A stretch of DNA of 64,000 nucleotides from Antedon mediterranea. Lineage: Eukaryota > Echinodermata > Crinoidea > Comatulida > Antedonidae. A model generated the notes under the pieces. The model was not told where the DNA came from. It saw nothing but the letters and a program-made list of their open reading frames with translations, and made no database searches. Below are positions 6,201-42,428 of this stretch, piece after piece. Where the stretch lies: assembly GCF_964355755.1 (NCBI RefSeq), contig NC_092677.1, positions 25,514,101 to 25,578,100 of the forward strand, written 5' to 3'. A program made the position numbers and the translations under genes. How positions within the stretch are numbered: the stretch's first letter is position 1; the number at the start of each line of letters is the position of its first letter.

Positions 6201-9200
6201 ACTATAGCTTACAAAAAGCAGTTTCTTTCAACTATATTTATATTTTAAAATCCAATAATAAATTGACTTGTTTCATTTTAGCGCATGTTTCCAACTTCTC
6301 AAGATATAGAATCTGTATCAGGCAAATGCAAGGAATATTACCAAGCCAAAGTAAGATATTTTTGTTTAGTAGAGATGAGAGATGATTGGATTGTGTTAGG
6401 AAACTAGCAAAGCTTCTACCAAATATATTCTATGCTTATGATAACATTATGACAAACATAATAAAACATAGTTTTGTTTACAGCTCTGTCTACACTATCA
6501 AACTTTATGTGTAAAAAAAAAAATGTGATGTGCCCATATATGGACACGATGTTGTCATATTACTACCATATTTGGGCATATCACATTTTTTTGTCAAACT
6601 AGTTTGATAGTGCAGACAGAGCTTAAGAGAATAAAAAAAATTGCTAATAGTCTTGTGGTTATGATGGTACCAGAATGTCGAACAGATGAGTCTAGATTTG
6701 TTGAAGAATACCGACTCGCACAAACTCACACCTGGTTATGCAGATTACATTGTGTCAAAGTTCAGTGTTGTTTTTTTTTTTAGGATGATGATGTAAAGCT
6801 ACAGCTTGTTAAAGATATTTCAAATATTACTTCAAACATTATTAAAAGGTTTGTATAAATTTTACTGCAGTAAGTACATTTTTTTAAACTGAATTAACAT
6901 GATGTTTTAATATAAAAGTTTATGAGGCAGACACTGTAATAAACAATTACCCCAAAAAAGCTTACTAAATGATTTCATAAACAGAGTAACAAAATATAAT
7001 TCTTGAAGGCTGCAGTAACTGCAGTACAATAAATTTCATATGATTCATATGTGAAATTAGCAACCAGGTTCCCAACACGTATCCTAAAAAACAGCATAAA
7101 AACACAAAACAATTCAACATTAATAAGAAATAGCCAAAAAATCTGAGATATTCAATTAAACTTACTAACAAAAAGGTTTTCATGTTTGCTATGCTTATAG
7201 ATGGACAATATGGCTATCCTGATTAATTTTTAACATAGCCCAATTGTTGTAATATTAATTCATTATTGATATTTAAATTTGATTTATTACAGTGATGTAG
7301 GTCTTGAACCGCAACATGTTCGATCTCTTTGTTACATATTCTCGGTATCCACCAATCCAAATGAAAGGTTATTGCTGTTACAATCCATAGTCAGGACTTC
7401 ATATAGAAACTTCAGGTAAGAATGTGCGCTTTATTGTGCTAAGGAAATCTAACAACAGGACGCTGAGCTTGCCTTGCTAAGATAGGAACTCGTAACAGTC
7501 CATTGATCTTATGTCTGGCTGCGACAAATACCAACAGTACTGTACTATGTACATATTATCCGTGGTGCAGTGTCTGGTAACCAAACATTAGAGGAAGCCA
7601 ATCAAAAATCAGTCAAAACTTTAAGGGTGTTGAACTGTTTGTGTCGCAGCCACAGATAAACCCTTTGATCTCAGGAGCGCAGCATTTCTTGTATATATTT
7701 ACTGTATATTTAACAAATTACATCTGTAGTTCACCATTTATTGGTTGCAATATGATAAATATGGATTGCTCAGAAACTAGGAAAATATTTCAAAATCCCA
7801 CAAAAACTTTCCATTTTTTTTCTCTTTTAGAAATTGTGATGTAATAATTGAGCATGGTTGTATCAAGGAAGTGTGTTCACTATTGAAAAAAGTTAGTTAT
7901 AAGAGATTATGTCAACAGTATCAAACTTGTTTGACAAAAAAAGGTGTAGGTGTCTGTGTTAATTAACTAACCAAATTTCTTAAGACCCTTGGGCCTGTTA
8001 AGCTATGTCTACACTATCAAACTAGTTTGACAAAAAAGTGTGATGTACTCATATATGGTCGAGATATTCCCAAATATGGTAGTGATATGCCATCATCATG
8101 TCCATATGGGCACTTTGCATTTTTTGTCACATAAAGTTTGATAGTGTAGACAGAGCTTAAGAGAAAATGTCAACATTATACGGATACGGCTTTACCACGT
8201 TGAAACACCGGTTCTCGTCAGATCACCGAAGTTAAGCGACGTTGGGCCTGGTTAGAGCTTGGATGGGAGACCATCTGGGAATACCGGGTGCTGTATACGG
8301 AGCTGGTGTCCCGTTAGGCATTTGAAATCAGCACTGCTGACTCTTATGGCAGCCCCTGCATCTGGTATCTGCCTCAGACCTCTGGTCAAGGTGGGCACTG
8401 GACAAGAGAAGCCCTTGATCAATGTTAGGACCAATCAAGGTGCTTTAGACATTCCTGGCTTTGTTTGTATCAAACCTGTTAGTGGCGGTAATTATCGCTG
8501 TTGGGGTCGATTAAATAAAATTTTAAAAAAATAAAAAAAATATTTTACTGTAGTTACTGCACTTCATTAGTCTGTCCTGTAATAATATTGTGTATGACAA
8601 CCCTAAAAATTGGTAAAGACATTTTTAAATCAGTCTCCCCTCCCCCACCTTCCCCTCAATGCAGTGCCTTTACTGTTACTATATTACATAGCCTATGTAA
8701 ATATATGAACGTGACAGATATTGCCTGCTTAGAGGTTAAATATAAGATTTGACATCCCCTTGTGAATGATATTATCATTTCTCGAGAAATATATTTCCCT
8801 CATCTAGCGCTTCGGGAAATATATATTCCCTCGAACAAAATATCATTCCCTCGGGGATGTCAAATCTTATATTTAACCTCTAAGCAGGCAATATCTGTAA
8901 AATATTGCTTTTTTTCATTGATGCACTTATTTTATCATTTGTATAGTACAGTATATATTTTAAGTTTGATCAGACTAGCTTTCAATTAATAGATTAACTT
9001 TTATAACTTTAACAAATAATGTTATAACTTATTTTTACAGTCAGATGATTGTGATGTAATTGAACAAGTTCTTTGTATTCTGAAGATTGTATCTATCACA
9101 AAGCGGTATGGCTTGATATTTGGGAAACCCCTATTCAGGGGACAATTTCTTGTTAAATGAACGACGGGCAATATGTATTATAGCTAACCCCATTCAGGCA

Positions 9201-12200
9201 GGGAGATACATCTCCCTGATTCAGGGGAGATCCCTATTTAGAGGAAACTTTCTTACGAAATTGATGAGAGGCAGTCTTATGTTTTAACACCAAGACCAGC
9301 CCCTATTCAGGGGACATTTCCCATGAAACAAACTAAAAGGCCAACCAACACTTATTAAGGGATAGCCTTGTTGGTCCCTAAAGCGTGGTTCCCACTAGCG
9401 ACGCAACACAAGGACGCAACGCAAGTGAATTGACCAATCACAAGCGATGGCTTATTCGCTTGTGATTGCTAACTGTTTATAACTTCGCTTGTCATTGGTT
9501 AAAACGCTTGCGTTGCGTTTACGTCCTTGCGTTACGTTCTAGTGGGAACCACGCTTTAAGCCTAAAGGGAAGTCCATATAAAATCTTTGATTATGTTCTT
9601 CTTGTCTTTCTGTTAGCAAACAGTGTTATTCTTTGTCTTTTAGGGTACGAGACAATTTGAATGAATTAGATGTGGATTCAATATGTGGTTTACTCGCTAG
9701 TAACAATCCATCTATTGTTAGTAATTGTTGTTTAGTTTTAAGAAAGCTGATGGCAGAGCATCCGGAGTAAGTACTCCTTGAAACTTAGTATTTCAATAAC
9801 TAATATTAAAGATGCATTGTCCCCCTGAACAAATAATTTGTACAAATTTTTTGTTGAATATGCCATTTTAATGTCACATAAACGTTATCCACTGACCAAA
9901 AATTGGATCGAAAAAAAATGTATTTACCTGACATAACTATAATATAAAGCCAATTATGTTATTTTAAAAGTGAAAACATTTTTTTCGTTTTTTTTTCTAC
10001 AGAAGTTATTTTTTAATATTATTAAAACCACAAAATAACCTATTCAAAGTCTGATTTAATTAAACTTTATGTTTTTGAGAGGACAATATATCTTTACTAG
10101 AATAAATTGCTTATTTAATAATATATTAATGTTGGTATGTGAAGGAACCAAGAACTATTGAAACAAGCTGGGGGTCTGAAGATGCTCTGTGATCTTCTGA
10201 AACTGCAGAGAAGGAATGTTGATACCTGCCAAAGTATTCTGGGTGTGCTTGTAGAATGTGCGAGTAACAGTAGGTAAGAGTCAAAGTTCAAAGTTCAATT
10301 CCCATTAGCAGAAAATGCATCCATAAGAGTTCAGTTTAGAGGCTTGGTTTTTTTTTAATCGAATGGTTTCAGGTACATGTGCACATGTAAAATGATATAT
10401 AAAATATATAATTATGATAAATAACTCCTTAAAAAATCACTCTTTTTCATCACTAATGTTTACAAATTTTTCATAACATCTAGAAAATCAGGCATTTTTG
10501 TTAAATGTTTGAGAGATTAATTATGTAATCTTAATCGATCAATTTCTGTCATATTTTAGGTATCGTGATAACATAAGGGAATTAGGCGGCCTTGATGAAT
10601 TGTGTGATATTATGTGGAATGTAGAAAATGAAGAGGTATTTCTTTTTGCCATCTCAAAATTATATATATATATATGTCCAAGTACTCTCGCTTGCACTGA
10701 TGAAGAGCTAGTGTTTTACTTTATCGTTTTGATTTAGCTTATTGCTTATTTTATTTTGTATCTCTCCATTGAGATCCAGTCACTGATGCCCACAGCATTG
10801 TCATTTTTCAGTGCTTATTTTATTTTGTATATCTCCATTGATATCCAGCCACTGATGCCCACAGCATTGTCATTTTTCAGTGCTTATTTTATTTTGTATA
10901 TCTCCATTGAGATCCAGTCACTGATGCCCACAGCATTGTCATTTTCCAGTGCTTATTTTATTTTGTATATCTCCATTGAGATCCAGCCACTGATGCCCAC
11001 AGCATTGTCTGTTTGCCTTTGGATTTATATATATACAAATCTATATAAATAAATAACCTGGTCAGCCTATTACTATGGATAATAGCAACTGACTGTAGGA
11101 TGGTCTATACCAATGCATTTGAACCTTGGAATGTAGGGGAAATTCCAAGGTGGGTGGAGCTAATGGGGGTAGTGCTTTGGTCGTTTGTTCCCCACAAAAT
11201 TATGATCTACTTTAACTATTACTATTTGTAACTATGGACGTCCGTTTCCGAAATAAAAGTAAAATGAATTTATGAATTACTATTATTATGATGACAGCTC
11301 GTCCATGTTTAAAACTCATGGTTCCGCCCCGAAATGTGATGTGATATAACGTAATTCGACTGTTTGTTGTTCTTTATTAGTTACTCTGTCTCTCAGCACA
11401 AACTTTAAAGTTCTTGGGAAACGGTAACACAGCCAACTTGACAGCAATGATTAATGAGGGGATGCAAGATAGTATTGAAAGGTAAAGAATTATACTCTAT
11501 AGCACAGTTCACAAAGCATTGCACCCAAAGGAATGAATTGAAATGAAATACATTGGGAGCCTAAAAAAGGTCCCTTAATAGGGGTTGGCAATAGTCTTAA
11601 AACATACACTGCACTTCATTAAGATCATGAAAAATTGTCCCCTTAATAGAGGTGTCTCCTGAATAGGGGTTTGCCAAACATATACTGTTCATTATTTTAA
11701 TGAAATATTGTCCCTTGATACAGGTTCCAAGGGTCTGCAGTGCATTGCTTTATCAAAATACCTTTTGGTTTACATTTTTTAAAGAACAGAATGGGGTACC
11801 ACTCGCAGCTCATTTCAGTAGTTCATACCTTACTTTTTGACTAATTCTTCCCCCTACAGTTTGTTGATGTCACCATCATACTCTGAAGTCACCGTGCACA
11901 CGCTATCGGATCTGGACATTCAGCTGCTAGAGTTTAGTTTCATGAACAAAGCTAAATTAGAACTCGTTAAAAGAGCCGAGGTAGAGGGAGTGGACATACA
12001 CGCCTTACAGACTATCGAACCGCAAAGCAAACCTTTGGCGATTGCGGACAACATTCCAAAAATTGCACCAAAGAAAAAAATCGAACAGAACATTATTGTA
12101 AAGAGTAAATTGGTCAGTAGATCAAAAGATATGTCTGAGATGTACCCTGGTTATAAAGCCGCAATGTCACCGATTTATACGCCCAACAGCTGTGACGTTG

Positions 12201-15200
12201 AAGAAGTTGATTTATCGGATCTTCCACCCCTTATTATTGCCGATACTACAACAAGGTACAGTACTAACATTATAAAAATATTTACTAAATCAACAGATAA
12301 TTTTTAATACTTTTTTATAACTTAAGCTCTGTCCACACTATCAAACTAATTTGACAAAACAATTGTGATGTGCCCAAATATGGTAGTGATATGCTTAAAT
12401 TTGGTAATGATATGTCATCATCATATCCATATATAGGCACATGACATTTTTTTGTTACAAAAAGTTTGATAGTGTAGACAGAGCTTTAATAATAAAAATT
12501 AAATTTACCAGAACAACTAACTTCTATTTTCAGAACTCATCCAAAGGTGCTATGGTCACAAAAACCGAATTTAATTTTATTAAGCGTTCAGTTGAGAGGC
12601 GTCCAGGAGCATGACACTAATGTAACAAGCCAGACCGTGTCTTTCAGGTGAATACCAGGTTAAAGTTCAAAGGTTAAATATGAATTAAGAGAGTACTAAT
12701 CTGTGACTATTAATATGCTTGAAGGAACATGATATAGGCCTGTAGCTATATCTTAAACTTCTCCCATCGTTAAATAAAATGTAGTCCAATTAAACCAAAA
12801 TGTATTCTTCTCTAAAGCTCTGTCTGCTTCATCTGACAAAATAATGTGATGTGCCCATATGTGGACATGATGCTTTAGGAATACAGACATCTTGTATTGT
12901 ATGTTAAGCTCTGTCTACATTATCAAAGTTTATGTGACAAAATAATGTGATGTGCCCATATATAGACACGATGCTTTAGGAATACAGACATCTTTTATTA
13001 TATGTTAAGCTCTATTTACAATATCAAAGTTTATGTGACAAAAATATGTGATGTGCCCAAATATTGTAGTAATATGACATCATCATATCCATATATGGTA
13101 ACATCAAATTTTGTCACATAAAGTTTGATAGTGTAGACAGAGCTTAAGAAATACAGATATCTTGTATGTCCTGTTTGTAGAATTATAATACATATTTTTA
13201 TTTGTTTGCATTCTAGCACTATTTTAGATATAGTTTGCTACGAGTTTAGCCTGGACCTATTTGGTAGCGTATCGACTACAAACCACGTGGTGTTGGTAAC
13301 CGGTGGCGAGGTTCTTATTACATTATTTAAACAAAATCTTGTTTGTTGGCCAAGATTGACAAAATCAAAGACAAAGGTATTATTGTTTACTTCAGTTTAG
13401 ATGCCTAAAGCTCTGTCTACACAATCAAACTTCATGTGACAAAAATGTGATGTGCCCGTATATGGACATGATGATGTCATATCACTACCATATTAAGCAT
13501 ATCACTATCATATGTGGGCACATCACTCTTTTTTTAATAGTGTAGACAGAGCTTAAGTGTATCCCTACCATTTGATTGGTTGATAACATATCGCATATTG
13601 TACATTTAATTTAATTCCACATTATTTAACCACGAGGCCCAGATCAACACAAGGTTGTCCTTCCCTGGGATTGTTGTCAGTGTGTTGAAAATGATTGTAC
13701 AAAATAAAATCTTTTCCATACAAAATTCACATTTTTGTAAACATTTTGTGAATTTGTTTAGGATGCGAGGCTGGTGACTATTGCATGTTTAAAAACTAAC
13801 CAGCAGTGTAACTTGTTCGTTGCGCCTCTACTCCAAAATTATAAGCACAATAAGTTTATCCAATTGGTGGGTTGCTTGCTGTAGAATTCGGATAAAAAAA
13901 AAAACCAATTTTTTTTTAAATACCTGACTGTCATAGTGTATGATTCTAAATAACTAGAGCTGACACAATGAAAAAGCAGAATTAAAGATATATTGTCCAC
14001 ATGAAAAATAATTTTTTTTTACATTTTTTTTAAATGTCATGTTACTGTCACATAATAGTTATTTACTTTGACCAAAACTGGATTGAAAATAACATTATTT
14101 ACCTGAAAAAATATTATTTAAAGCAAGAAATACTTAAATTGTCTGTCAGACAATGAGTTTTTGGTTACCATTTATTTTGTCTTTGTATAAGCATGGAGAA
14201 ATAAGCTAACTTATTTCTCCATGGTATTAGTGAAATAAATGAAGTGAAGAACTTAATCAAAATGGCCTATTCAAAGTCTGATTTTATTAATCTTCATTTT
14301 TCATGATTTTGGGGTACAATACATCTTTAAAGTAATCATACAATAATAACGTGAGTAAATAGAGAAATAAAATGATATCGGAACTAAATAATGTCAGGGA
14401 TTATAGGGGAAGTACATTTTTAAAGGTAAAGTGTAGCCCTTCCTATAAAATTTAACTAACTAATTTAACTTTTAGTAATATTTAGATCATCTAATTAAAA
14501 TGCTAAGCCATCTCTTGAATTCTTTTCTTGCTCATCATTTTTCTGTCTGGAAAATTAACAAATAGTTTTGTCATTATTTTAGGGACAATTAATATATCTT
14601 TAAACTATTGTGTATAAATGTTGGGGTGATTTGTATATTGTAGGTATCATTTATTGGAGTTGATTTTGAACGCTGGCAAGACAATTCGTCTAGTTCTGAT
14701 GGCGTCAAAAAGGAGAAGTCAGTAAAACCTACTGTAAGTCCAAAGTCAAAAGGTCAGTGAATGTTGTTTATTTTGTTATATATTGTTTGAAGGTTTGCAT
14801 GGCGAAATCAAATGTTGATATAAAGTGTAAAGACACCACGTATATTTGTTCTGAAAAGAACTGTTGAGTTTCTCAACGTTTCACTCTTGAGGACAATCAA
14901 AGTATATTGATTGAAATAGTTAAAATAAAAGAAAATTATGAAAAAAGTGGATATATATATATATATCTGACCGAATTGTTTCGATCAAATCGTACAAAAG
15001 ATAAAAGAAAGTACAAGAAAATAACAGAACAGAATAACAAGGGAATATATATTTGTATGAAGTGTAAAATCATTGTATTGATAATTTGAGAATGAAATGA
15101 ATAAAATAGTGGTTAACGCCACAAAAGAGAAAAAAAAAAGTATATTGATTGAAACATGGAGAAACTCAACAGTTCTTTTCAGAACTAATATACGGTGTAC

Positions 15201-15886
15201 CGCAAACTTTATATCAATATTTTGTTATAGTAATTCTATTTTTTTATGAAATGTTTGATGCAAATTTTTGTTATCGGAATGAAATATGGAGACATTTTTT
15301 TGTCATGCCTAGTTTTTTTAGGGTCTGTTTCTATTGAAAAATTACGAAAGAAGGTTTTTCGTATAAACTGTTATCGGTAGTTTGTTTATAAATGAAGATC
15401 GTATTCCAGTTTAGTATTTACTACAATAAAATCATTTGCGTCAAGTATCGTTTGTTATGAAATGACATTATTACCCACAATACAGTTTGTTGGACGGAAA
15501 TGCCACTGTTAAATGTTCAATTCAATTCAACGTCAACATTTATTTTCTTTCTTTCAATCAATAATAAAACAATTGAATAAGGTATTAAAAAAGAAAGTTA
15601 GAGTTTCAAATAATACATTTTATAAATATCAGCTATATTCATATATAGTATTTTGTTTTGTAGAGCACTCTTCATTTCGAAACGGTACATTTTTGTTGTG
15701 AACACTATTAGCATTTTGCAAAGCTTGTTGAGCTTGTGCACTCTTTGTGTTCATAATCAGTGTACCATGTCCCGCATACCTGGCTCAGCCTATATATTGT
15801 GCCAGTTATGCGGTACATTTCATTTCGAAACCTGAGCTGCACTGACGAGATCTAATAAGATCGAAACAGTACTGTCTGCAGATTGG

Positions 15887-15918
<32 letters not shown>

Positions 15919-16509
15919 TTTCATTGAGTTGAGTTGAAAAAAATCACCATTCATACTGCTTTAGGTATGAAATAAAATAAACATTTCTTGCCGATCCAAA
16001 CTGGAATCAGTTGGGGTTTTTTTTCGTGGACCTATTTCTGCTAACTTTTAAAAAAAAGTATCGAATGCCGCATTTTCGTACTCAATAGAAATGGGCCCTA
16101 AAAACCCTTCTCCTCAGCCCTTTAATTACTTCTGTCAAGATTTACTCGGATAATTGTATTGGTGGAGCTGTAGCTTGGTGGTTAACATGCTTGCCTTCCA
16201 ATCCCGAGGTCCGGGTTCAATCCTGACGTAGTGCCAGGGTTGTAACTCAAGACTCTTGCTCCCTAAGCCTCAAATGAGACTTTGTTTATAAGCATGATAA
16301 ATTATAGAAATAGTTTATCCATCTATAATTGGAAAGGTACTCGCTGTTCGATGCGTATGAAATAAAAAAAATAAAACGATGTTTCATAAACTGTTACAGA
16401 AAACAAAACGATATCAAGTCAACCACAAACAGTCGTGCTTCCAGAATTTGATTCGTCCAGTGGAAAAACTGATGAGACCTCCAGCAACAGTGAAGACTTT
16501 AATTTTTAG
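239..16509 (+). CDS. CCCH zinc finger / double Tudor / armadillo / CS-domain protein (5' partial)
   Basis: The exons are 239-303, 520-619, 1358-1636, 1735-1824, 2207-2269, 2603-2664, 2988-3117, 3418-3497, 3967-4089, 4234-4437, 4586-4718, 5135-5266, 5805-5969, 6282-6350, 6784-6848, 7293-7415, 7831-7891, 9041-9105, 9644-9766, 10145-10273, 10560-10635, 11381-11481, 11860-12255, 12534-12647, 13217-13376, 14644-14752 and 16400-16509. All junctions are GT/AG and phases agree (3327 nt, 1108 residues plus stop). In visible residue numbers: CCCH finger C12-x8-C21-x4-C26-x3-H30; Tudor 1 about 55-190 (GDLCVIED, VQLVDNGRF); Tudor 2 about 380-430 with hallmark FLDYGDLEDI; armadillo-like helices about 565-780 (LCDLLK, GGLDELCDIM); linker; CS/p23-like domain about 945-1060 (WPRLTKSKTK, VSFIGVDFERW); acidic Ser-rich tail. 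Known: Tudor domains with CS domains occur in TDRD12/Yb-type piRNA factors. Inferred: a germ-granule/piRNA protein. The start lies upstream of the window, so a helicase could precede the finger. Confidence 0.8.
722..1335. repeat. Intronic minisatellite, about 90-105 bp unit, about 6 copies
   Basis: A unit containing CACAAGAGGCTACTTCTGTC followed by TATTTATTGACTTAAGTGAA recurs about six times in the intron between the second and third visible exons of the Tudor/CS gene. The last two units are nearly identical, so expansion is recent at the 3' end. Confidence 0.75.
1847..2051 (-). repeat. tRNA-Gly-derived SINE (copy 1)
   Basis: Read on the - strand this begins GTGGAGCTGTAGCTTAGTGG and carries a tRNA-Gly(UCC)-like anticodon region (CTTCCAATCC) and a B-box-like GGGTTCAATCCTGAC. 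It ends in a short A-rich tail. A second copy lies at 16163-16377 on the + strand, sharing the tRNA-unrelated body. Confidence 0.65.
2680..2843. repeat. MITE-A copy
   Basis: Left end TCTACACTATCAAACT, right end partly decayed (GTGTAGGAAGAGCTTTAA). The interior carries three units of CCATATTTGGGCACATCACTA, one of the longer internal arrays of this family. Confidence 0.7.
3599..3905 (+). repeat. tRNA-derived SINE, second family (copy 1)
   Basis: A-box-like TGGCTGAGCGATTAAG (tRNA-Leu/Ser-like) and B-box-like GGGTTTGAAGCTC are followed by a conserved body ending CAAGAGGTTGCCAGTATAAAT. A diverged copy lies at 52885-53180. It sits in an intron of the Tudor/CS gene. Confidence 0.65.
4836..4984. repeat. 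MITE-A copy
   Basis: Both ends are visible (AAAGCTCTGTCTACACTATC and GATAGTGTAGACAGAG). The arms pair as a near-complete palindrome. Intronic in the Tudor/CS gene. Confidence 0.8.
5430..5705. repeat. MITE-B copy, enlarged
   Basis: Ends AAGCTTTGTTCCCACTAGAACG and CGCTAGTGGGAACTAAGCTTT are in inverted orientation. This copy is about 275 bp, longer than the usual 180 bp, so its centre holds extra sequence. Confidence 0.7.
6482..6625. repeat. MITE-A copy
   Basis: Near-complete palindrome with ends CAGCTCTGTCTACACTATC and GATAGTGCAGACAGAGCTT; intronic in the Tudor/CS gene. Confidence 0.8.
8000..8160. repeat. MITE-A copy
   Basis: Full-length palindromic copy with ends AAGCTATGTCTACACTATC and GATAGTGTAGACAGAGCTTA. 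It lies immediately upstream of the 5S-derived SINE. Confidence 0.8.
8182..8545 (+). repeat. 5S-rRNA-derived SINE
   Basis: The first ~115 bp resemble 5S rRNA: TACGGCTTTACCACGTTGAA at the 5' end, GAAGTTAAGCGACGTTGGGC (box A region), then GGTTAGAGCTTGGATGGGAG and CTGGGAATACCGGGTGCTGT (box C region). A ~230 bp unrelated body follows and ends in an A-rich tail. A free-standing 5S gene would end after GCTGT and a T-run, so a 5S-headed SINE (SINE3 type) fits best. It is intronic in the Tudor/CS gene. Confidence 0.75.
8714..8898. repeat. Perfect foldback element, 46 bp arms
   Basis: Arms 8714-8759 and 8853-8898 are exact reverse complements (46/46), with a ~93 bp AT-rich loop. The arm begins ACAGATATTGCCTGCTTAG. 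It lies inside an intron of the Tudor/CS gene. Confidence 0.85.
9380..9559. repeat. MITE-B copy
   Basis: About 180 bp palindromic element with ends AAAGCGTGGTTCCCACTAGC and CTAGTGGGAACCACGCTTTA, interior CAATCACAAGCGATGGCTTA. It is close to the family consensus. Confidence 0.8.
9811..10094. repeat. MITE-C copy
   Basis: Left end GATGCATTGTCCCCCTG, right end GAGGACAATATATCTTTAC, with the family interior AATGTCACATAAACGTTAT. It contains a polypyrimidine-ACAG stretch typical of this family. Confidence 0.7.
10745..11010. repeat. Tandem repeat, about 70 bp unit, 4 copies
   Basis: The unit contains TCCATTGAGATCCAGTCACT followed by GATGCCCACAGCATTGTC. A single diverged unit with the same flanks (TTTTACTTTATCGTTTTGAT, TTTGCCTTTGGATTTAT) occurs at 41945-42070. 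This is therefore an interspersed element whose core amplified here. Confidence 0.75.
12323..12488. repeat. MITE-A copy
   Basis: Full-length copy, ends TAAGCTCTGTCCACACTATC and GATAGTGTAGACAGAGCTTT, between the two exons flanking the start of the CS domain. Confidence 0.8.
12817..13147. repeat. Tandem half-MITE-A units plus one full MITE-A
   Basis: Two truncated left halves of MITE-A (from 12817 and about 12905), each followed by GGAATACAGACATCTT, precede a full-length copy (13006-13147). The right flank of the full copy also reads AGAAATACAGATATCTT. This points to tandem duplication of a MITE plus its flank, with loss of right halves. Confidence 0.7.
13406..13555. repeat. MITE-A copy
   Basis: Full-length palindromic copy, ends TAAAGCTCTGTCTACACAATC and TAGTGTAGACAGAGCTTA. 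It lies in the intron inside the CS-domain coding region. Confidence 0.8.
13762..13866 (+). CDS. Possible 35-codon cassette exon inside the CS domain
   Basis: This stop-free 105 nt segment has a TTTAG acceptor and a GT donor (TTG/GTGGGT). It is phase 0 at both ends, as are the flanking exons, so it could be included without a frameshift. It has higher GC than its surroundings. However, it would interrupt WPRLTKSKTK-VSFIGVDFERW, which is contiguous in CS domains. It may be an alternative exon or a chance ORF. Confidence 0.35.
13982..14328. repeat. MITE-C copy
   Basis: Ends AAAGATATATTGTCCACATG and GGGGTACAATACATCTTTAA bracket the family interior (ACTTTGACCAAAACTGGATT). It lies in the Tudor/CS gene, in the intron before the last CS exon. 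Confidence 0.75.
14808..15230. repeat. Inverted-repeat element with about 70 bp arms
   Basis: The left arm (GTTCTGAAAAGAACTGTTGA, preceded by GATATAAAGTG) is reverse-complemented at about 15160-15230 (AACTCAACAGTTCTTTTCAG, then CTTTATATC). Separate from the other MITE families; it lies in the last intron of the Tudor/CS gene. Confidence 0.6.
15300..16112. mobile_element. TIR element about 0.8 kb enclosing the ribozyme region
   Basis: Left end TTTTTAGGGTCTGTTTCTAT is matched in inverse by ATAGAAATGGGCCCTAAAAA at the right. A second inner match, ATTCCAGTTT, supports arms of roughly 100 bp. No transposase is visible. The interior holds the hammerhead ribozyme and an (AT)n run. Confidence 0.5.
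15837..15881 (+). ncRNA. Type I hammerhead ribozyme
   Basis: Stem I is CTGCA (15837-15841) pairing with TGCAG (15877-15881). The core is CTGACGA (15842-15848). Stem II is GATCT/AGATC with an AATA loop (15849-15862). GAAA (15863-15866) follows. Stem III is CAG/CTG with a 2-nt TA loop (15867-15874). TC (15875-15876) gives the predicted cleavage site after GUC. Every invariant core position of a hammerhead is present. A tiny stem III is typical of ribozymes in Penelope-like elements and retrozymes, which may act as dimers. An (AT)n run follows. Confidence 0.85.
16163..16377 (+). repeat. tRNA-Gly-derived SINE (copy 2)
   Basis: Starts GGTGGAGCTGTAGCTTGGTG. The region TGCTTGCCTTCCAATCC resembles the anticodon arm of tRNA-Gly(UCC), and CCGGGTTCAATCCTGAC is B-box-like. 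The tail ends TATGAAATAAAAAAAATAAAA. It sits just before the last exon of the Tudor/CS gene. Confidence 0.7.
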
Positions 16510-17623: not shown

Positions 17624-18713
17624 TTAGTCAGTCCATTTTGTTGAAATTTCCATTGTAACTTTTCTTTTTTTCCATTTCGACTTTGGAGGATTTGGGTCAG
17701 GTCTTTCAAATCGTACTATTCCCATTGACTCCTCTATCCGACTGTTCATCAGTTTTGAAGTGTTCATAAAATAGTTGCATCTTGAGTTTGATGCCACGTG
17801 CTGTATATTCGTATCGTGTTGATCTTTTCCCTTTTCCACTTCTTGGAAGCAATCTTTGATAAAATTGGACTGTAGCATTTTAAATGTTGCTAAATCATCT
17901 TTAAATGAATCGCCATATTCAACAATTCTTTCTTTGAATCTTTTCAGAAAATAATCGTAAAGTTGACTGTCTGCCCAATTCCAATTTCGAATGTGTTGTT
18001 TAAGATTGCTGTCGAGTACACTCCGTTTAACTTTTTTTCTTCGATTTATTGGTAAATAAACCAAATCGCGTAAATCCCAGCAAAGAACTTTGCTAAGTAA
18101 AACTAAAGATTCGTCATAGTATTCATTTATCAGTATCAAATCCATTTCTTTGTCAAGTTTTCTTATTTTCGTGGTTACAATCCCGGTATTTCTAAAATCT
18201 TTCTTATCCAGGCCTAGATCAAAAAACTGGCTGTTGTGAATGTATGGTAATTTGTCGTAAGTGATGCGTGACATGTAAAATTTCGTTTTCCTGAAGAACT
18301 CTTGCATTTGTCTGAAGTGGGTTCGTCCTGGTACGAACTGACCAAAATAAAAGAAGATAAAGGAGGACTCAAATTGTAGAGCTGGCTCTCTTAGAATGGA
18401 AATATAGACGGGATCACGTCGCATGAACTCGTTAAAAATGTCCGGCGTGTATCGAACATGTAGCGTCAATATATTGTATTTATAATGTTTAAAGTCTCCC
18501 ACAGCAACTCCTTGAGGTGGTATGAACGATTGATAAGATATTGCGTTAAATCGTTTGTTGCTGCTGTGAAAATTGGTTTCATATTGTAGCTTGCGAACAA
18601 ACGATAAAGAGTGTTCATATCCGTAGATGTCAACGAGCCGCGAAAGCGTCGTGCTGCCTGTTTTGTGAGTTTTGGCAAAAACTATCGTCTGTCTTGGCTT
18701 GCATTCCCGCCAA
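17624..18713 (-). CDS. Galactose-3-O-sulfotransferase, catalytic exon (copy 1, 5' exon not found)
   Basis: The enzyme family transfers sulfate from PAPS to the 3-OH of galactose on glycolipids or glycans in the Golgi. The frame is open from an acceptor-like AG at 18714-18715 to the stop at 17624-17626, about 363 residues. It shows the PAPS 5'-phosphosulfate loop (VFAKTHKTGSTTL), the 3'-phosphate motif region (LREPALQFESSF), and family blocks HNSQFFDLGLD and MDLILINEYYDESLVLL. The acceptor and phase 2 match copy 2 exactly, so a membrane-anchor exon should lie at higher coordinates. The exon-1-like sequence at 25677-25847 is frameshifted for this join. The C-terminus is Lys-rich and abuts a ~110 bp degenerate duplication (17510-17700). 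Could be a working gene with an unseen first exon or a young pseudogene. Confidence 0.75.
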
Positions 18714-18845
18714 CTTTGATAAGAATGAAGAAAGAATAATATGCACTCATTACAGTAATATTAATGTCCTATTATTTTTTTCAAACTAGATATTTTATGC
18801 AATTGTACTATATTTTGTTTAATAATATGAAAACTGATCCTTATA

Positions 18846-27217: not shown

Positions 27218-29607
27218 CTACTTATAGTTTACAGTTGGCGCCTTCATTAACTGTCTTATTCTCTTATTTGACTCAGGTGAGGCTTCGGTATAAATTCTGC
27301 ATTCTTTGCTCATATTTTCTGTTTGGTTGTACAGTATCTGCTTTCCACTGACGTATTGTCCAATAACGCATTTCTTACGTACATCAGCCATCATGTCACG
27401 ATAGCGCATAAGATCTACGTGAAAAGACGGTCCATAATCACGTATACGTTCATGCAGTCTTTTAACAAAGTGATCATACAGCAATGTATCGGCATGGTTT
27501 TTTTCGCGCGCTTTTTGGCGAAGTGCAGACGACAGTGGAGTCTTTTTATAGTCTGCCCGTCTGTTCATCGGAAGGTATAAAATGTCTTCAAGTTTCCAAC
27601 AAAGGAGTTTTCTAAGTAGCAGTAACGATTCGTCAAAAAACTCGTTTATGAGAACTAGGTCCATTTCTTCATCAAGATTGGATATCGTCTCATTAATTGC
27701 AGTTTCGTTGTTAAAAAAATTGTTGTCTAAACCAAGATCGAATATTTGATCGTTGTTAACATATACATGTGATGCGGCTTTGGGGTATTTTTGTGGAGTC
27801 AAAAGAAACTGTTCGATTTTTGAAACACTAGATTTTGTGTTTTTCATTAATCTTTCTATGTTAAAAAAAGAAAATGCTGATTCCAACTGCGTGGATGGAT
27901 CTCTCAAAAGTGTTGTATATTTCGCACCATCTTCCATAAATTCTTCTATATATTTACGAGTATAGCGAACATGTAGGGTCAGCATGTTGTATTTGTAGTT
28001 GGAATAATCTCCCTTGGTTACGTTCGGTGGTGGGAGAAACCCATGGACAGATTTGCTATTAAACCGAAGATTAGCAAAATGAATTGACTTTTTGTCGTTA
28101 ATTTTTCTAACAAACGTTAGGTTGTGTCTGCAGCCGTATCGTTCGATCGTTCTAGCTAATGTTTGAGAGCCAGTTTTATGAGTTTTTATAAACACCACCG
28201 TTTGTTTGGCCGTGCATGTCTTATCAAATCTAGAAGATAAAAGTATTACGTTTTTTAAAAAACAATATTGTCATTGGTTAATTATCCCAGGGAAGAGTGA
28301 GAATAATAGACACGTTTCGCGCTCGCAAGGTCACCGTCAGTTTGACCTTTTAGTGGGTATACAATGGTAAACAAACACAGCGAGAGGTATGTTAAAGCAT
28401 GGGAGAACTGAGAGATGATCATCTTAAAAAGCAATCGTCAAAACTAGCCTTTGATGGAATGGCATGGTAAGGATGTTATTTATTTTCTAAACTTATGTTT
28501 TATATTCACTGTAGAATTGGTTTGGAATCATCGACTTTATTTATGTATTTATTGTCATTTTTGGTTTGACACATATATATTACGGTGCATTTAATACATG
28601 TTAACTGTTGATTTTATTTACAAATGTTGCGTAAATATATTAATTATTATCTTTCATTCTTCTTCATGCTCCTATTGCATCTTCCATGTATTATGTGATG
28701 TTCTTCGGCGCTTAAACAGACACCCAAGCCTCCTAGGCCTATAGTAGACGAAGTACCGCATCAGGCAACGCCACCGGGCGGGCGGAGAGACACGAGCACA
28801 TCGTGGACGTACCTTTCCTTGAAAAATTTCCAAGATTTTGCGCCACTATCCTTCGGAGCCGACGCAAACTACTCAGCGTCGTGTTTGAAAATTAAAAACA
28901 GGAATATTATTCAGTGATTTTGTGTAGTTAAATTCACGATTTATCCAACATTTATGATGCACCTTGCAACAAAAGCACTCGGCAGTCGCCATTTCGCTAT
29001 GCTTCAACACGCACTAGGCGAGAGGTGTTCGGTTTGTTTACAAATCTATACCCACTATTTCTGATTGGTCGCGAGCGCGAAACGTGTCTATTGCACTCCT
29101 CCCTGATTATCCTAAAGCTCTATTTACACTATCAAACTTTGACGTGACAAAAAATGTGATGTGCCCAAATATGGTAGTGATATGAAGTCATCGTGTCCAT
29201 ATGGGCAAATCAATTTATTTTGCCACATGAAGTTTGTAGAGTAGATCATTATTTTCTGTATGATGGGCGTATCTGTAATTGATTCAATAGGCCTAATTAA
29301 ATATCATTAAGTAATTAACATTAATCTTTATTTTCAATCACGCGAACACAGTCTTTTACGTTTTATTGTAGCCTATTCATTACGAGCATTACGAGCAACT
29401 ATTATGACACGCCATGTGTGCAAAAATGTATCACCATGACCAATATTCTTACCCAGCATAATAACCCTCCGTTTTGTAAACTCTTGGAGACGGCGGCTTT
29501 CCTTGATATACTGAATTAGTAGGTCCAGACAGTGTGCTGATTGCCGTATACATGCCTATAAACACTAATGTTGAAATCACAATACCAATCTGTGTTAAAA
29601 TCAACAT
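27218..29607 (-). CDS. Galactose-3-O-sulfotransferase (copy 2, complete two-exon CDS)
   Basis: Exon 1 is 29453-29607 and exon 2 is 27218-28229; GT/AG and phase 2 fit (1167 nt, 388 residues). It is a type II Golgi protein: hydrophobic anchor at residues 2-23, short stem, then the PAPS-binding loop FIKTHKTGSQTL (HKTGS at 69-73) and the second PAPS motif LLRDPSTQLESAF (about 159-171). Family blocks NDQIFDLGLDN and MDLVLINEFFDESLLLL follow. Known: Gal3ST enzymes sulfate the 3-OH of galactose (as in GAL3ST1, cerebroside sulfotransferase); exact acceptor unknown here. The intron holds MITE-A and a 0.78 kb TIR element. A MITE-A begins 13 bp upstream of the ATG and is itself split by a 9.2 kb element. 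A 3-codon uORF (29607-29618) overlaps the start as TAATG. Confidence 0.85.
28307..29090. mobile_element. TIR element, 0.78 kb, with paralogous near-empty site
   Basis: Ends TAGACACGTTTCGCGCTCGC and GCGAGCGCGAAACGTGTCTA are exact inverse matches; weaker pairing continues for about 60 bp (TAGTGGGTATA, GTAAACAAAC). Block A reads GAGAATAATTGCACTCC at the same place, so a TA target duplication is likely (block A is 2 bp shorter than expected). No ORF is evident. Confidence 0.8.
29113..29243. repeat. MITE-A copy (block B intron)
   Basis: Counterpart of the copy at 25354-25482, with the same decayed right end. Confidence 0.7.
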
Positions 29608-32335: not shown

Positions 32336-34443
32336 CCCCCACATCACCTCATAATCTTAAACCACTACAAAAATAACACACAAAATTCAATACAACAATG
32401 TAACATTTTTAACATCAACTATTCTCCAAATAGAAATATTTTTAAATTTCTCTAGTTTAACCTTGGTGGCTGGTTTGGTTAAAATATCTGCCACCATGTC
32501 TTCTGTTGGACAATACTGGATATCTATTTGTCCATCTTTTAAGACATCCCTTATGAAATGATACCGTATATCTGTATGCTTAGACCTTTGTCTTTGCACT
32601 GGGTTTCTGCTTAATGCTATAGCACCTTGGTTATCACATGAAATATGAGCACATTTAAACTCATTTTTCATATTTGTCTTAAAATCACTAAGTACATTCT
32701 CATTTGTGGCTGCAATTAATATATCGTCAACCCATATTACAACAATTACTAAGTCATCTTTGTTGCGTTTTGTATATACACAGTAGTCTGCTGGGTTTCT
32801 TTTAAAATCATTACTCTTCAAGTGGTTGTGCAGCAGCTGATTCCAATTTCGACCTGACTGTTTAAGCCCGTATAATGACTTGTTCAATTTTAATACTAAT
32901 TTTTCCCCATTTTCAGACTTAATTTTGTAACCTTCAGGTTGGCTTAAGTATATTTCGGTATCAATATCTGCATTTAAGTATACAGATTTCACATCCATCT
33001 GGTGGACTATAAGGTTATGTTGTACAGATATTTGCATTAATGTTCTAATTGAGGTCAAATTGGCTGTGGGCGAGAATGTCTCATGATAGTCTATGCCTTT
33101 TATTTGGTTAAAACCCTTGGCAACGCATCTTGCCTTGTACGTGTGATTACCCTCGGCCGATTCCTTTATAGCAAATACCCATTTTCCGCCAATGAGGTGT
33201 TTGTCATTGGGTAATGTGACTATCTTAAAGGTGTTATTATCTTTCAATGATTGTAATTCTTCATCCATTGCCCTTTTCCAACTTTCTGAATATTGGGAAT
33301 TTGTAGCTTCTGTATATGTTAAGGGAACATTTTGACATGACATATGATAGATCGAATCATCACTGTCAAATTCAGTCTCATACTCCTGTAGGTAATTGGG
33401 ATACTTTCTCTCCCTTTGAGGGTACCTTCTGTGGGCATCATCAATATCTACCCCATTGTTGTCATTTTTCTCTAAGTTATCATAATTATTAACATTTGGG
33501 GTATTTTCATGTTCAATAATTTGGGATTCATTTGTGTTCTCATTATCCTCCAAGTTTACATTTGTTTCGTCACTTTCATCTGTCTGTGTTTGGCAGTGAA
33601 GATTCCAGCAAAAGACATCTACCCATTTCAAAAAGAGTGCGCCAATTACGTTCCGCGGTTCCATTTTGATGGGGTGAATTTGGAGATGAAAACTCATGTT
33701 TAATACCTCTATCTGTCATTAGGCTTTTGAAGTCAGAACTGACATATTCACCACCGTTATCAGTTCGCAAGCACTTAACTTTGCCTATTGGGGCACAGTC
33801 AGAAAGAAATTGTTTGGTAGCTGCTGCAGCATCACTTTTCATTCTGAGGAAGTAAACAAAAACAAAACCAGAATGGTCATCAGTAAATGATATGGCGTAT
33901 TTGAATTCGTCTTTAGCCAATGGTGATATTGGCCCTGCCAGATCAGAATGTACTAAGGCTAATGGACAATTTGCCCTTTTGTCTGGTTCTCTATTTCTTA
34001 CATTAACAAATTTACCTTCAGTGCATATGTTACATGTTTCCTTAACTTTACTACCTTTGATTTCCATGCCGTCCACTACCTTTTCTAATTTTAGTACATC
34101 GTCAAAGTTACAATGTCCTAGGACTCTATGCCAATATTGTAAATCTTTAACAAGGCTTAATTTATCTACTTCTCTAGGTGCACTTGTGGTTGGTAAGTAG
34201 TATAGGTTGTCAATAATACTCATTTTGAATGTTCTTCCAGCATTAGTGATTGTGTTTTCTTCTTTACTAAGGGTTACTCTTGCTCCTGTTGTCGTTGCAG
34301 CTCTTACGCTCATTATGTTGTGTGGGTACGTTGGTATGTACAGGGCATTTTTTAAGACAGTTTCTACTTTCTCGTTGTTTTCATCTATCAGGTTTATGTG
34401 TGCATGTCCTCTCTTTACTGCAACACCATTGACCTTGACATGC
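32336..34443 (-). mobile_element. Truncated Copia (Ty1-type) retrotransposon pol
   Basis: Reading 34443 down: protease end (LKNALYIPTYPHNIMSV), gag-pre-integrase (WHRVLGHCNFDDV), integrase (FTDDHSGFVFVYF, CLRTDNGGEYVS, NGTAERNWRTL), then in another frame the RT (SFSPTANL-type block FSPTANLTSIRTL, WVDDILIA) and RNase H (AHISCDNQGAIALSRNP, KHTDIRYHFIRD). Two internal deletions are inferred: one after LLLESSLPN, shifting the frame near 33600, and one joining RT residues MKNEFK directly to the RNase H. Gag and the 5' LTR are missing. It cannot be autonomous. Confidence 0.85.
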
Positions 34444-41021: not shown

Positions 41022-42428
41022 TGTACCTTTAAAATAATAATTATCTTCTAGACTTCTTTTACCGGAAAACTTACTCCGTTACCATTTCATTGCCAGGAAT
41101 TCTTCTAATTAATTGAAATATTTTAACGACAGTATATTCAAATGAGGCAAATGTGACCGAGGAAGAATAACCTACCGTGTCAAATGTTCATTAAATCATG
41201 GTAGATACAAAGGCGCATAGAAGACAATCTCACTGCTGAGTAGGAAAGCATTGAAATTTTAATTTATTGTATAAAGGACAATTTTAGTAGTATAGTTTTT
41301 CCTTTTTGGGAATTCGCATTCATTTCGGCATAATTTACATACATTGAACAAAGTTTATTGTAAAGAATATCTCGACACAATTCTAACCAGGTTTTAACAA
41401 ATTAATGGAAACCGAAATTAGCTCGACTGCTTTTCCTACCAGCAAAGAATAAGATGCAATCCAAAGATACAAAAAATATATAATAATAAACAACTCTAAC
41501 TTATGCTACATTTTGCAAATTGTAGAATTACTAAATTTATTTTTAAAAAGTAATAAGAAAAGCTTTTATTGTGGCCATGTATATCAATGAATTAGTTAGA
41601 ATAATATTAATATACCGCTTACACACAAAAATATGTTTAAAAAAATATTCAAAAATTGATATGAATAGCCTGAAGAACCAAAATTATAATCCAGAATAAA
41701 CGCGTCATGTTTGAATCTGGTTAGTTACCTATGGAATGCCATCAAACTTCAATTCTATTCGGCTCTTTTAGCAATCGGCGCTCAATATTTACCGGCTACA
41801 TCACGTCATATTCAGTGGAGCCAATTATTATGCTTACAAAGTTTATAGTGTTATCAGTAGTATTATGGCACCCTTTAGATTATTATCATAGTTTGGAAAG
41901 TATATAATAAATAGTGTTGCCCGAAAGCTCTGCTATTCTTTCTGGCTGTTTTACTTTATCGTTTTGATTTAGCTTTCTCTTATTGTGTTTTGTATCGCCA
42001 TTGAAATCCAGCCACTGATACCCACAGGATTGTCATTATTTTCAGTAATTTGCCTTTGGATTTATAATAAAGACGAAGAAAGACACACAACAAGTTCAAT
42101 GAAGTGTTCCACATTTTGCAGAAATATCACAAGACGCCATCTATCGTTGTGTTAATATTCAAAGTGAATGAACAGAAGTAGGCCTAGATGTGAAAGTTTT
42201 AAATCATATATTTAAATTATAGGCATCAACAGGTTTTAGTTCCCGTCCGGTAAGATTGGCCATTGCTAACCATTTCATAATCTGTATTTTTTAGTTGCGT
42301 TTAATAGAGGTAAATGACCAATGACGTAAAGTAATAATTCATAAAGTGAATTAATTAGGTATAAAATCACAACAAACTGTTTGGGGGCGCTAAAATGTTT
42401 ATACACAGTGAGTGCCTGCCTTCTCTGT
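41022..42428. other. Intergenic, one diverged interspersed-repeat unit
   Basis: Mostly unrecognised AT-rich DNA. 41945-42070 matches one unit and both flanks of the tandem element at 10745-11010 (ATCCAGCCACTGATACCCAC). Confidence 0.5.

What the first reader, a model, noticed from the sequence alone, without database searches (positions are those of the whole stretch)
15837..15881. Complete minimal hammerhead ribozyme in an intron
All invariant core nucleotides and three stems are present, with a GUC cleavage site at 15876/15877. Stem III has 3 bp and a 2-nt loop, the form found in Penelope-like elements and retrozymes. Repeated CATTTCGAAAC motifs (about 15670 and 15820) and an adjoining (AT)n suggest a small mobile element. 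Self-cleavage could cut the host pre-mRNA just before its last exon.
Basis: seen in the sequence. Interest (0 to 1): 0.78.

Follow-up and report, generated by a model that had tools for sequence, protein, structure and literature searches.

The report
Retrozyme fragment with a hammerhead ribozyme
A short RNA-cutting element of a kind already known from animals sits, cut short at one end, in what looks like an intron; its copies share one fixed end and one kind of landing site with a Penelope-type retroelement, which suggests whose machinery copies it.

Summary
The hammerhead is real: 15837-15881 holds the full type I core, with the predicted cut at 15876/15877. Rfam Hammerhead_HH9 matches at 32.5 bits, below its 52-bit gathering score. 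It is the 3' part of a non-coding repeat, here 15632-15886 plus (AT)14. The 40-nt ribozyme (up to 3 mismatches) occurs 193 times in this 354-Mb genome, reversed-pattern control 0. In 115 loci compared, the unit is 281 nt, 40% GC, and 18 loci hold unit-to-unit junctions. This fits published metazoan non-LTR retrozymes: a new member of a known kind.

New here: the 3' end is fixed. 111 of 113 terminal ribozymes end 10-16 nt after the cut, usually GATTGGAT joined to (AT)n, while 5' ends vary. This suggests target-primed reverse transcription at AT-rich DNA. A Penelope-like element with a minimal hammerhead (1522 sites) ends in TTTGGATT(TA)n, lies in the fetched flanks of 30 of 115 retrozyme loci, and is joined head-to-head with the retrozyme directly in two. 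I infer a shared machinery; it is not shown.

The window copy is one 5'-truncated unit, so it cannot make a unit circle alone. Cleavage, circles and host effects are untested.

The parts
15632..15890 (+). retrozyme copy, one unit truncated at its 5' end (unit positions 33-281, then 1-14)
   Evidence: 95.4% identical over 263 columns to the 281-nt unit taken from locus L016
15837..15881 (+). type I hammerhead ribozyme; predicted cut 15876/15877
   Evidence: identical to the commonest 40-mer in the genome (one search lists this place with 0 mismatches)
15831..15886 (+). hammerhead with outer stem I (CC 15831-15832 / GG 15885-15886) and internal loop
   Evidence: HH9 alignment, MFE fold
15671..15683 (+). 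first arm with TTTCGAAA
   Evidence: pairs with the second arm in the predicted fold
15819..15831 (+). second arm with TTTCGAAA
15882..15890 (+). 3' tail ATTGGATAT: the fixed 3' junction zone of the family (unit positions 6-14)
   Evidence: 111 of 113 terminal ribozymes in 115 loci break at unit positions 10-16 (recounted)
15887..15914 (.). (AT)14, landing-site microsatellite joined to the tail
   Evidence: letters; 85 of 104 loci have TATA or ATAT in the first 12 nt of the 3' flank against 166 of 1000 control 12-mers
15516..15629 (-). another repeat (tail (TTGAA)n on the minus strand) that stops at the retrozyme's 5' end
12256..16460 (+). putative last intron of the host gene, holding the element in sense
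   Evidence: my reading of splice signals AAG|gtacag and tccag|TGG; no transcript evidence

Best explanation
The feature is the 3' two thirds and more of a metazoan non-LTR retrozyme, a non-coding retroelement whose 281-nt unit carries a type I hammerhead. Elsewhere in the genome tandem copies would be transcribed, cut by the ribozyme and closed into a circle. A reverse transcriptase supplied in trans starts at UUGGAU-AU, where the 3' end of nicked (AT)n DNA can pair, and runs round the template, giving copies with one fixed 3' end and variable 5' ends, sometimes longer than one unit. The machinery is most likely that of a Penelope-like element whose own 3' end is TTTGGATT(TA)n. The window copy is such an insertion, next to an older repeat, in an intron. 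Shown: motif, copy number, unit, tandem junctions, fixed 3' end, variable 5' end, AT-rich landing sites, co-location with the Penelope-like 3' end. Inferred: cleavage, circles, circular template, target priming, the Penelope partner (about 0.6), the intron.
For: 193 ribozyme sites, control 0. Unit of 281 nt, GC 40%. 132 ribozyme instances in 115 loci: 19 internal junctions in 18 loci (14 after dropping duplicate loci L034, L037, L040, L039) and 113 terminal; 111 of 113 break at positions 10-16, 91 of them at 14 (one search gives 39 of 40 for the loci picked by whole-element similarity and 72 of 73 for those picked by the ribozyme pattern). 5' breakpoints spread over the whole unit. TATA or ATAT in the adjoining 12 nt: 68 of 104 at the 5' side, 85 of 104 at the 3' side, control 166 of 1000. 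The unit as a circle folds at -71.8 kcal/mol, z -3.9, and the window copy at -86.9, z -7.9. Penelope-like 3' end (T1): directly downstream of an RT plus GIY-YIG frame in 4 of 4 copies fetched for this (L149-L152; GIY-YIG 22.5 bits against a cut-off of 22.6); present in the fetched flanks of 30 of 115 retrozyme loci where about 0.5 would be expected from 1522 sites; head-to-head joints with 0-1 nt between in L080 and L110.
Against: Target-site duplications are not found beyond chance: 4 of 99 loci against 2.24 on average, 6 at most, in shuffled pairs, although L102 has a 16-nt one. The four orientations of retrozyme and T1 are about equally common (8, 7, 7, 5), so co-location may reflect only a shared liking for (AT)n. 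The shared tail is six letters, TTGGAT. Two other Penelope families here end differently. No sign that the ribozyme is better kept than the rest once the reference copy's own five differences are set aside. The Rfam match is sub-threshold.
Confidence: 0.78

Rival explanations
1. The retrozyme is moved by a LINE-type retrotransposon with an (AT)n-like 3' tail and merely shares AT-rich landing sites with Penelope-like elements.
For: Variable 5' ends with a fixed 3' end are equally typical of LINE-driven copies (general knowledge). No orientation bias in retrozyme-T1 pairs. A repeat with a (TTGAA)n tail also abuts the window copy. PMC7229834 names LINEs beside PLEs as candidates.
Against: The tail TTGGAT+(TA)n is shared with the T1 Penelope 3' end. 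Direct head-to-head joints with T1 resemble the inverted 5' ends of Penelope copies in this genome. I did not search for LINEs with a matching tail.
Confidence: 0.3
2. The template is a linear multimeric or uncut transcript and not a circle; the ribozyme plays no part in copying.
For: In the anole PLE, ribozyme mutants insert as well as wild type in vitro (PMC11167929). Most loci are shorter than one unit (25 of 111 reach 281 nt), so few need a template longer than one unit.
Against: The 3' end lies 10-16 nt beyond the cut, which a cut linear unit could not give; 18 of 115 loci run across a unit junction.
Confidence: 0.3
3. The repeat is an ordinary satellite or a DNA-level element and the hammerhead is a relic.
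For: Loci are spread out and many are old-looking; HHR conservation is not above the rest.
Against: One fixed 3' end with scattered 5' ends, dispersed single copies, and 72 exact ribozyme copies in the 115 loci (note that 75 of these loci were picked for 0-1 mismatches).
Confidence: 0.06
4. The window ribozyme has been kept for a host function, as proposed for intronic hammerheads of amniotes, and regulates the host gene by cutting its last intron.
For: Intact core in sense in a putative last intron; best Rfam match is the amniote-type HH9 model (that HH9 is intronic is recalled).
Against: It is one of many near-identical copies scattered by retrotransposition; nothing marks it as older or better kept.
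Confidence: 0.04

Closest known systems
Metazoan non-LTR retrozymes (Cervera and de la Pena 2020, PMC7229834)
   Same: Type I hammerhead with weak helix III, unit within 150-450 bp, low GC, non-coding, tandem copies, highly self-paired predicted circle.
   Different: Here most copies are single and 5' truncated; the 3' junction, the AT-rich landing site and the link to one Penelope-like family are described; no RNA evidence.
Penelope-like elements with minimal hammerheads (PMC11167929 for the anole element; the 2014 and 2017 primary papers were not held)
   Same: Hammerhead a short way upstream of the 3' junction, AT-rich landing sites, internal start of reverse transcription, inverted joints.
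   Different: The retrozyme has no reverse transcriptase frame and has helix III.
Plant LTR retrozymes (PMC4918200, seen in a search listing and as described in PMC7229834)
   Same: Non-autonomous, ribozyme-processed, circular RNA intermediate.
   Different: Type III hammerheads in LTRs with PBS and PPT; none of this here.
Rfam Hammerhead_HH9, RF02275
   Same: Same fold and core; best family match.
   Different: 32.5 bits, below the gathering score of 52.

Membership tests
Metazoan non-LTR retrozyme | type I hammerhead with invariant core | tested here: met
Metazoan non-LTR retrozyme | unit of 150-450 bp with low GC | tested here: met
   281 nt, 40.2% GC
Metazoan non-LTR retrozyme | tandem copies | tested here: met
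   19 internal junctions in 18 of 115 loci; the window copy itself is single
Metazoan non-LTR retrozyme | no coding capacity | tested here: met
   longest stop-to-stop frame overlapping the window copy is 69 aa
Metazoan non-LTR retrozyme | highly self-paired RNA | tested here: met
   prediction only: z -3.9 as a circle, 0 of 200 shuffles as good
Metazoan non-LTR retrozyme | self-cleavage and expression as linear and circular RNA | not testable with these tools
   no RNA data or assay
Metazoan non-LTR retrozyme | target-site duplication, when present | tested here: inconclusive
   4 of 99 loci against a shuffled mean of 2.24; (AT)n targets hide duplications
Penelope-like element | RT and GIY-YIG frame | tested here: not met
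   no long frame in the 281-nt unit (for the window copy)
Penelope-like element | minimal hammerhead lacking helix III | tested here: not met
   helix III of three pairs or more
Rfam Hammerhead_HH9 | gathering score of 52 bits | tested here: not met
   32.5 bits in the window; 0 of 17 genome matches over the cut-off

The most novel reading that the evidence does not exclude
Animal retrozymes are satellites of Penelope-like elements: the circular RNA carries a copy of the Penelope start signal (UUGGAU followed by U/A), the Penelope protein nicks (AT)n on both strands and starts there on the circle, and when one strand primes on retrozyme RNA and the other on Penelope RNA the two cDNAs meet head to head, leaving the mixed inverted joints seen in L080 and L110.
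Probability: 0.4. Interest if true: 0.72.

Novelty: new member of a known kind. Interest (0 to 1): 0.52.

Why it matters
Which autonomous element moves animal retrozymes is open: PMC7761336 (passages seen) says their repeats show no conserved motif that would help to deduce it, and PMC7229834 proposes PLEs as a strong candidate. A fixed tail shared with one Penelope-like family of the same genome, shared landing sites and mixed head-to-head joints make that question directly testable with a named protein, RNA and target. In the held library I found no description of retrozyme insertion junctions (searches, listings only beyond the three papers opened).

Tried and rejected
CATTTCGAAAC repeats as element borders or duplications: rejected, they are pairing arms. 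Target-site duplications as a general mark: not supported. Excess of one retrozyme-T1 orientation: none. Better conservation of the ribozyme than of the rest: 29 of 1335 against 256 of 5877 mismatches, but 102 of the latter come from five positions where the reference copy L016 differs from most, so no claim. A hammerhead in the young Penelope family L128-L131: the strict patterns and Rfam found none; a degenerate motif is seen by eye. Retrozyme sequence inside the first Penelope loci L041-L046: only 12-13-nt chance matches. A paralogous empty site for the window insertion: the 3' flank has no other copy and the upstream repeat does not resume. An excess of 5' ends at full unit length: 11 of 115 in the first 20 positions, bins range from 1 to 18. 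Other species could not be searched: the collections on hand hold no animal genomes apart from the window's own. The last line (span quantiles) used a wrong field and was replaced.

Selection: 115 loci were compared, of at least 193 sites. L001-L040 are the best 40 of 331 candidates of a whole-element search; L047-L121 are the remaining listed places, all with 0 or 1 mismatch, a list cut by the tool. The ribozyme pattern reaches to unit position 5, so 3' ends before that were not sampled in the second set.

Full report
Observation. The letters at 15837-15881 form a complete type I hammerhead with the cut expected at 15876/15877. Rfam's HH9 model matches with 32.5 bits and E 3e-6 but stays below its gathering score. 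The motif alone does not fold better than many shuffles. The copies settle it: 193 sites of a 40-nt ribozyme pattern at up to 3 mismatches, none for the reversed pattern.

The element. A whole-element search gave 92 matching pieces from the best 40 of 331 candidates. From a locus with two successive complete junctions (L016) I took one real unit of 281 nt, 40.2% GC, counted from the first base after the cut. The window copy covers unit positions 33-281 and then 1-14, that is 15632-15890, followed by the rest of (AT)14. It is one 5'-truncated unit with one ribozyme, so it cannot release a unit circle by itself.

Ends. In 115 loci I found 132 ribozyme instances. Nineteen, in 18 loci, continue into a next unit; 113 are terminal, and 111 of these break at unit positions 10-16, 91 at 14. 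The result is the same for the 40 loci chosen by whole-element similarity (39 of 40) and the 75 chosen by the ribozyme pattern (72 of 73). The 5' ends lie all over the unit. Spans range from 48 to 821 unit positions, median 162, with 25 of 111 non-duplicate loci at 281 or more. TATA or ATAT occurs in the adjoining 12 nt at 68 of 104 5' sides and 85 of 104 3' sides, against 166 of 1000 control 12-mers. One fixed 3' end, scattered 5' ends and AT-rich targets are what target-primed reverse transcription would leave. Because the 3' end lies past the cut, a cut linear unit cannot be the template; a circle or an uncut multimer can. Target-site duplications do not exceed shuffled pairs.

The partner. 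Flanks share one repeat, T1, with a minimal hammerhead motif that occurs 1522 times at up to 3 mismatches, control 0. T1 lies directly downstream of a frame with reverse transcriptase in L149-L152, 4 of 4 copies fetched to test this; the 650-aa frame of L151 gives RVT_1 (37.4 bits) and GIY-YIG (22.5 bits, cut-off 22.6). T1 is thus the 3' end of a Penelope-like element. It ends in TTTGGATT(TA)n; the L151 copy lacks this end. The retrozyme ends in GATTGGAT(AT)n. T1 is found in the fetched flanks of 30 of 115 retrozyme loci; 0.5 intact copies would be expected in the 113,880 bases examined. Twenty-seven pairs lie within 60 nt, in all four orientations at similar numbers. In L080 and L110 the truncated 5' ends of T1 and retrozyme meet with 0-1 nt between; L104, L113, L073 and L062 have 5-16 nt between, TATATA in two, which sequential insertion explains as well; L086 shows retrozyme joined head to head with retrozyme. 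Penelope copies here also have inverted 5' ends, and the anole Penelope protein was reported to cut and extend both strands of AT-rich DNA and to start inside its RNA (PMC11167929, parts 1 and 2 of 4 read). I take the Penelope partner as likely (about 0.6) and a LINE as the main rival (0.3).

Host. A Tudor domain and a sub-threshold ARM repeat lie on the + strand upstream. I read a donor at 12255/12256 and an acceptor at 16460/16461, which join ...IADTTT to SGKTDETSSNSEDFNF and a stop. The ribozyme would then lie in sense in the last intron. This is by eye; no transcript was available. Whether cutting there matters is unknown; from general knowledge, splicing can proceed across a cut intron.

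Relation to what is known. PMC7229834 (parts 1-4 of 6 read) describes metazoan non-LTR retrozymes: type I hammerheads in tandem units of 150-450 bp with low GC, expressed as circles of about 170-400 nt. Each of these features that I could test is met. PMC7761336 (passages seen) states that no motif yet points to the autonomous partner. The window element is therefore a new member of a known kind; the junction evidence is what it adds.

Noticed in passing
window 8182-8299 (+): Full-length 5S rRNA match (88.2 bits) inside the region of the putative host gene.
   Followed up: no
window 10694-11033 and 41912-42066 (+): Fragments of the T1 Penelope 3' end; the first holds a 69-bp tandem expansion.
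   Followed up: partly
L128-L131; L132: Two Penelope-like families carry hammerhead-like motifs in which the letters at the C3 and G8 positions read T and A (TTGAGAA, TTGATAA), by eye; a paired change at positions known to pair would be worth an activity test.
   Followed up: no
L128-L131: Penelope-like copies about 99.9% identical with inverted 5' ends, which suggests recent activity.
   Followed up: partly
L092: Retrozyme ends at unit position 5 and is joined to a tRNA-like sequence (by eye), unlike the other loci.
   Followed up: no
L017: Tandem of shortened retrozyme units, about 170-175 nt apart.
   Followed up: no
L152 2967-3001 (-): A retrozyme ribozyme fragment lies about 0.4 kb downstream of a Penelope copy with two T1 ends in tandem.
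   Followed up: no
window 15315-15337 and 16082-16104: Inverted repeat of 23 nt, 87% complementary, around the element; a similar start follows the Penelope copy in L132 (by eye).
   Followed up: no
window 17627-18760 (-) and 27221-28270 (-): Two long frames matching galactose-3-O-sulfotransferase.
   Followed up: no
window 32390-34442 (-): Copia-type reverse transcriptase and integrase pieces in two overlapping frames.
   Followed up: no
window about 16163-16262 (+): tRNA-like stretch, by eye, perhaps a SINE head; ARAGORN finds no tRNA gene in the window.
   Followed up: no
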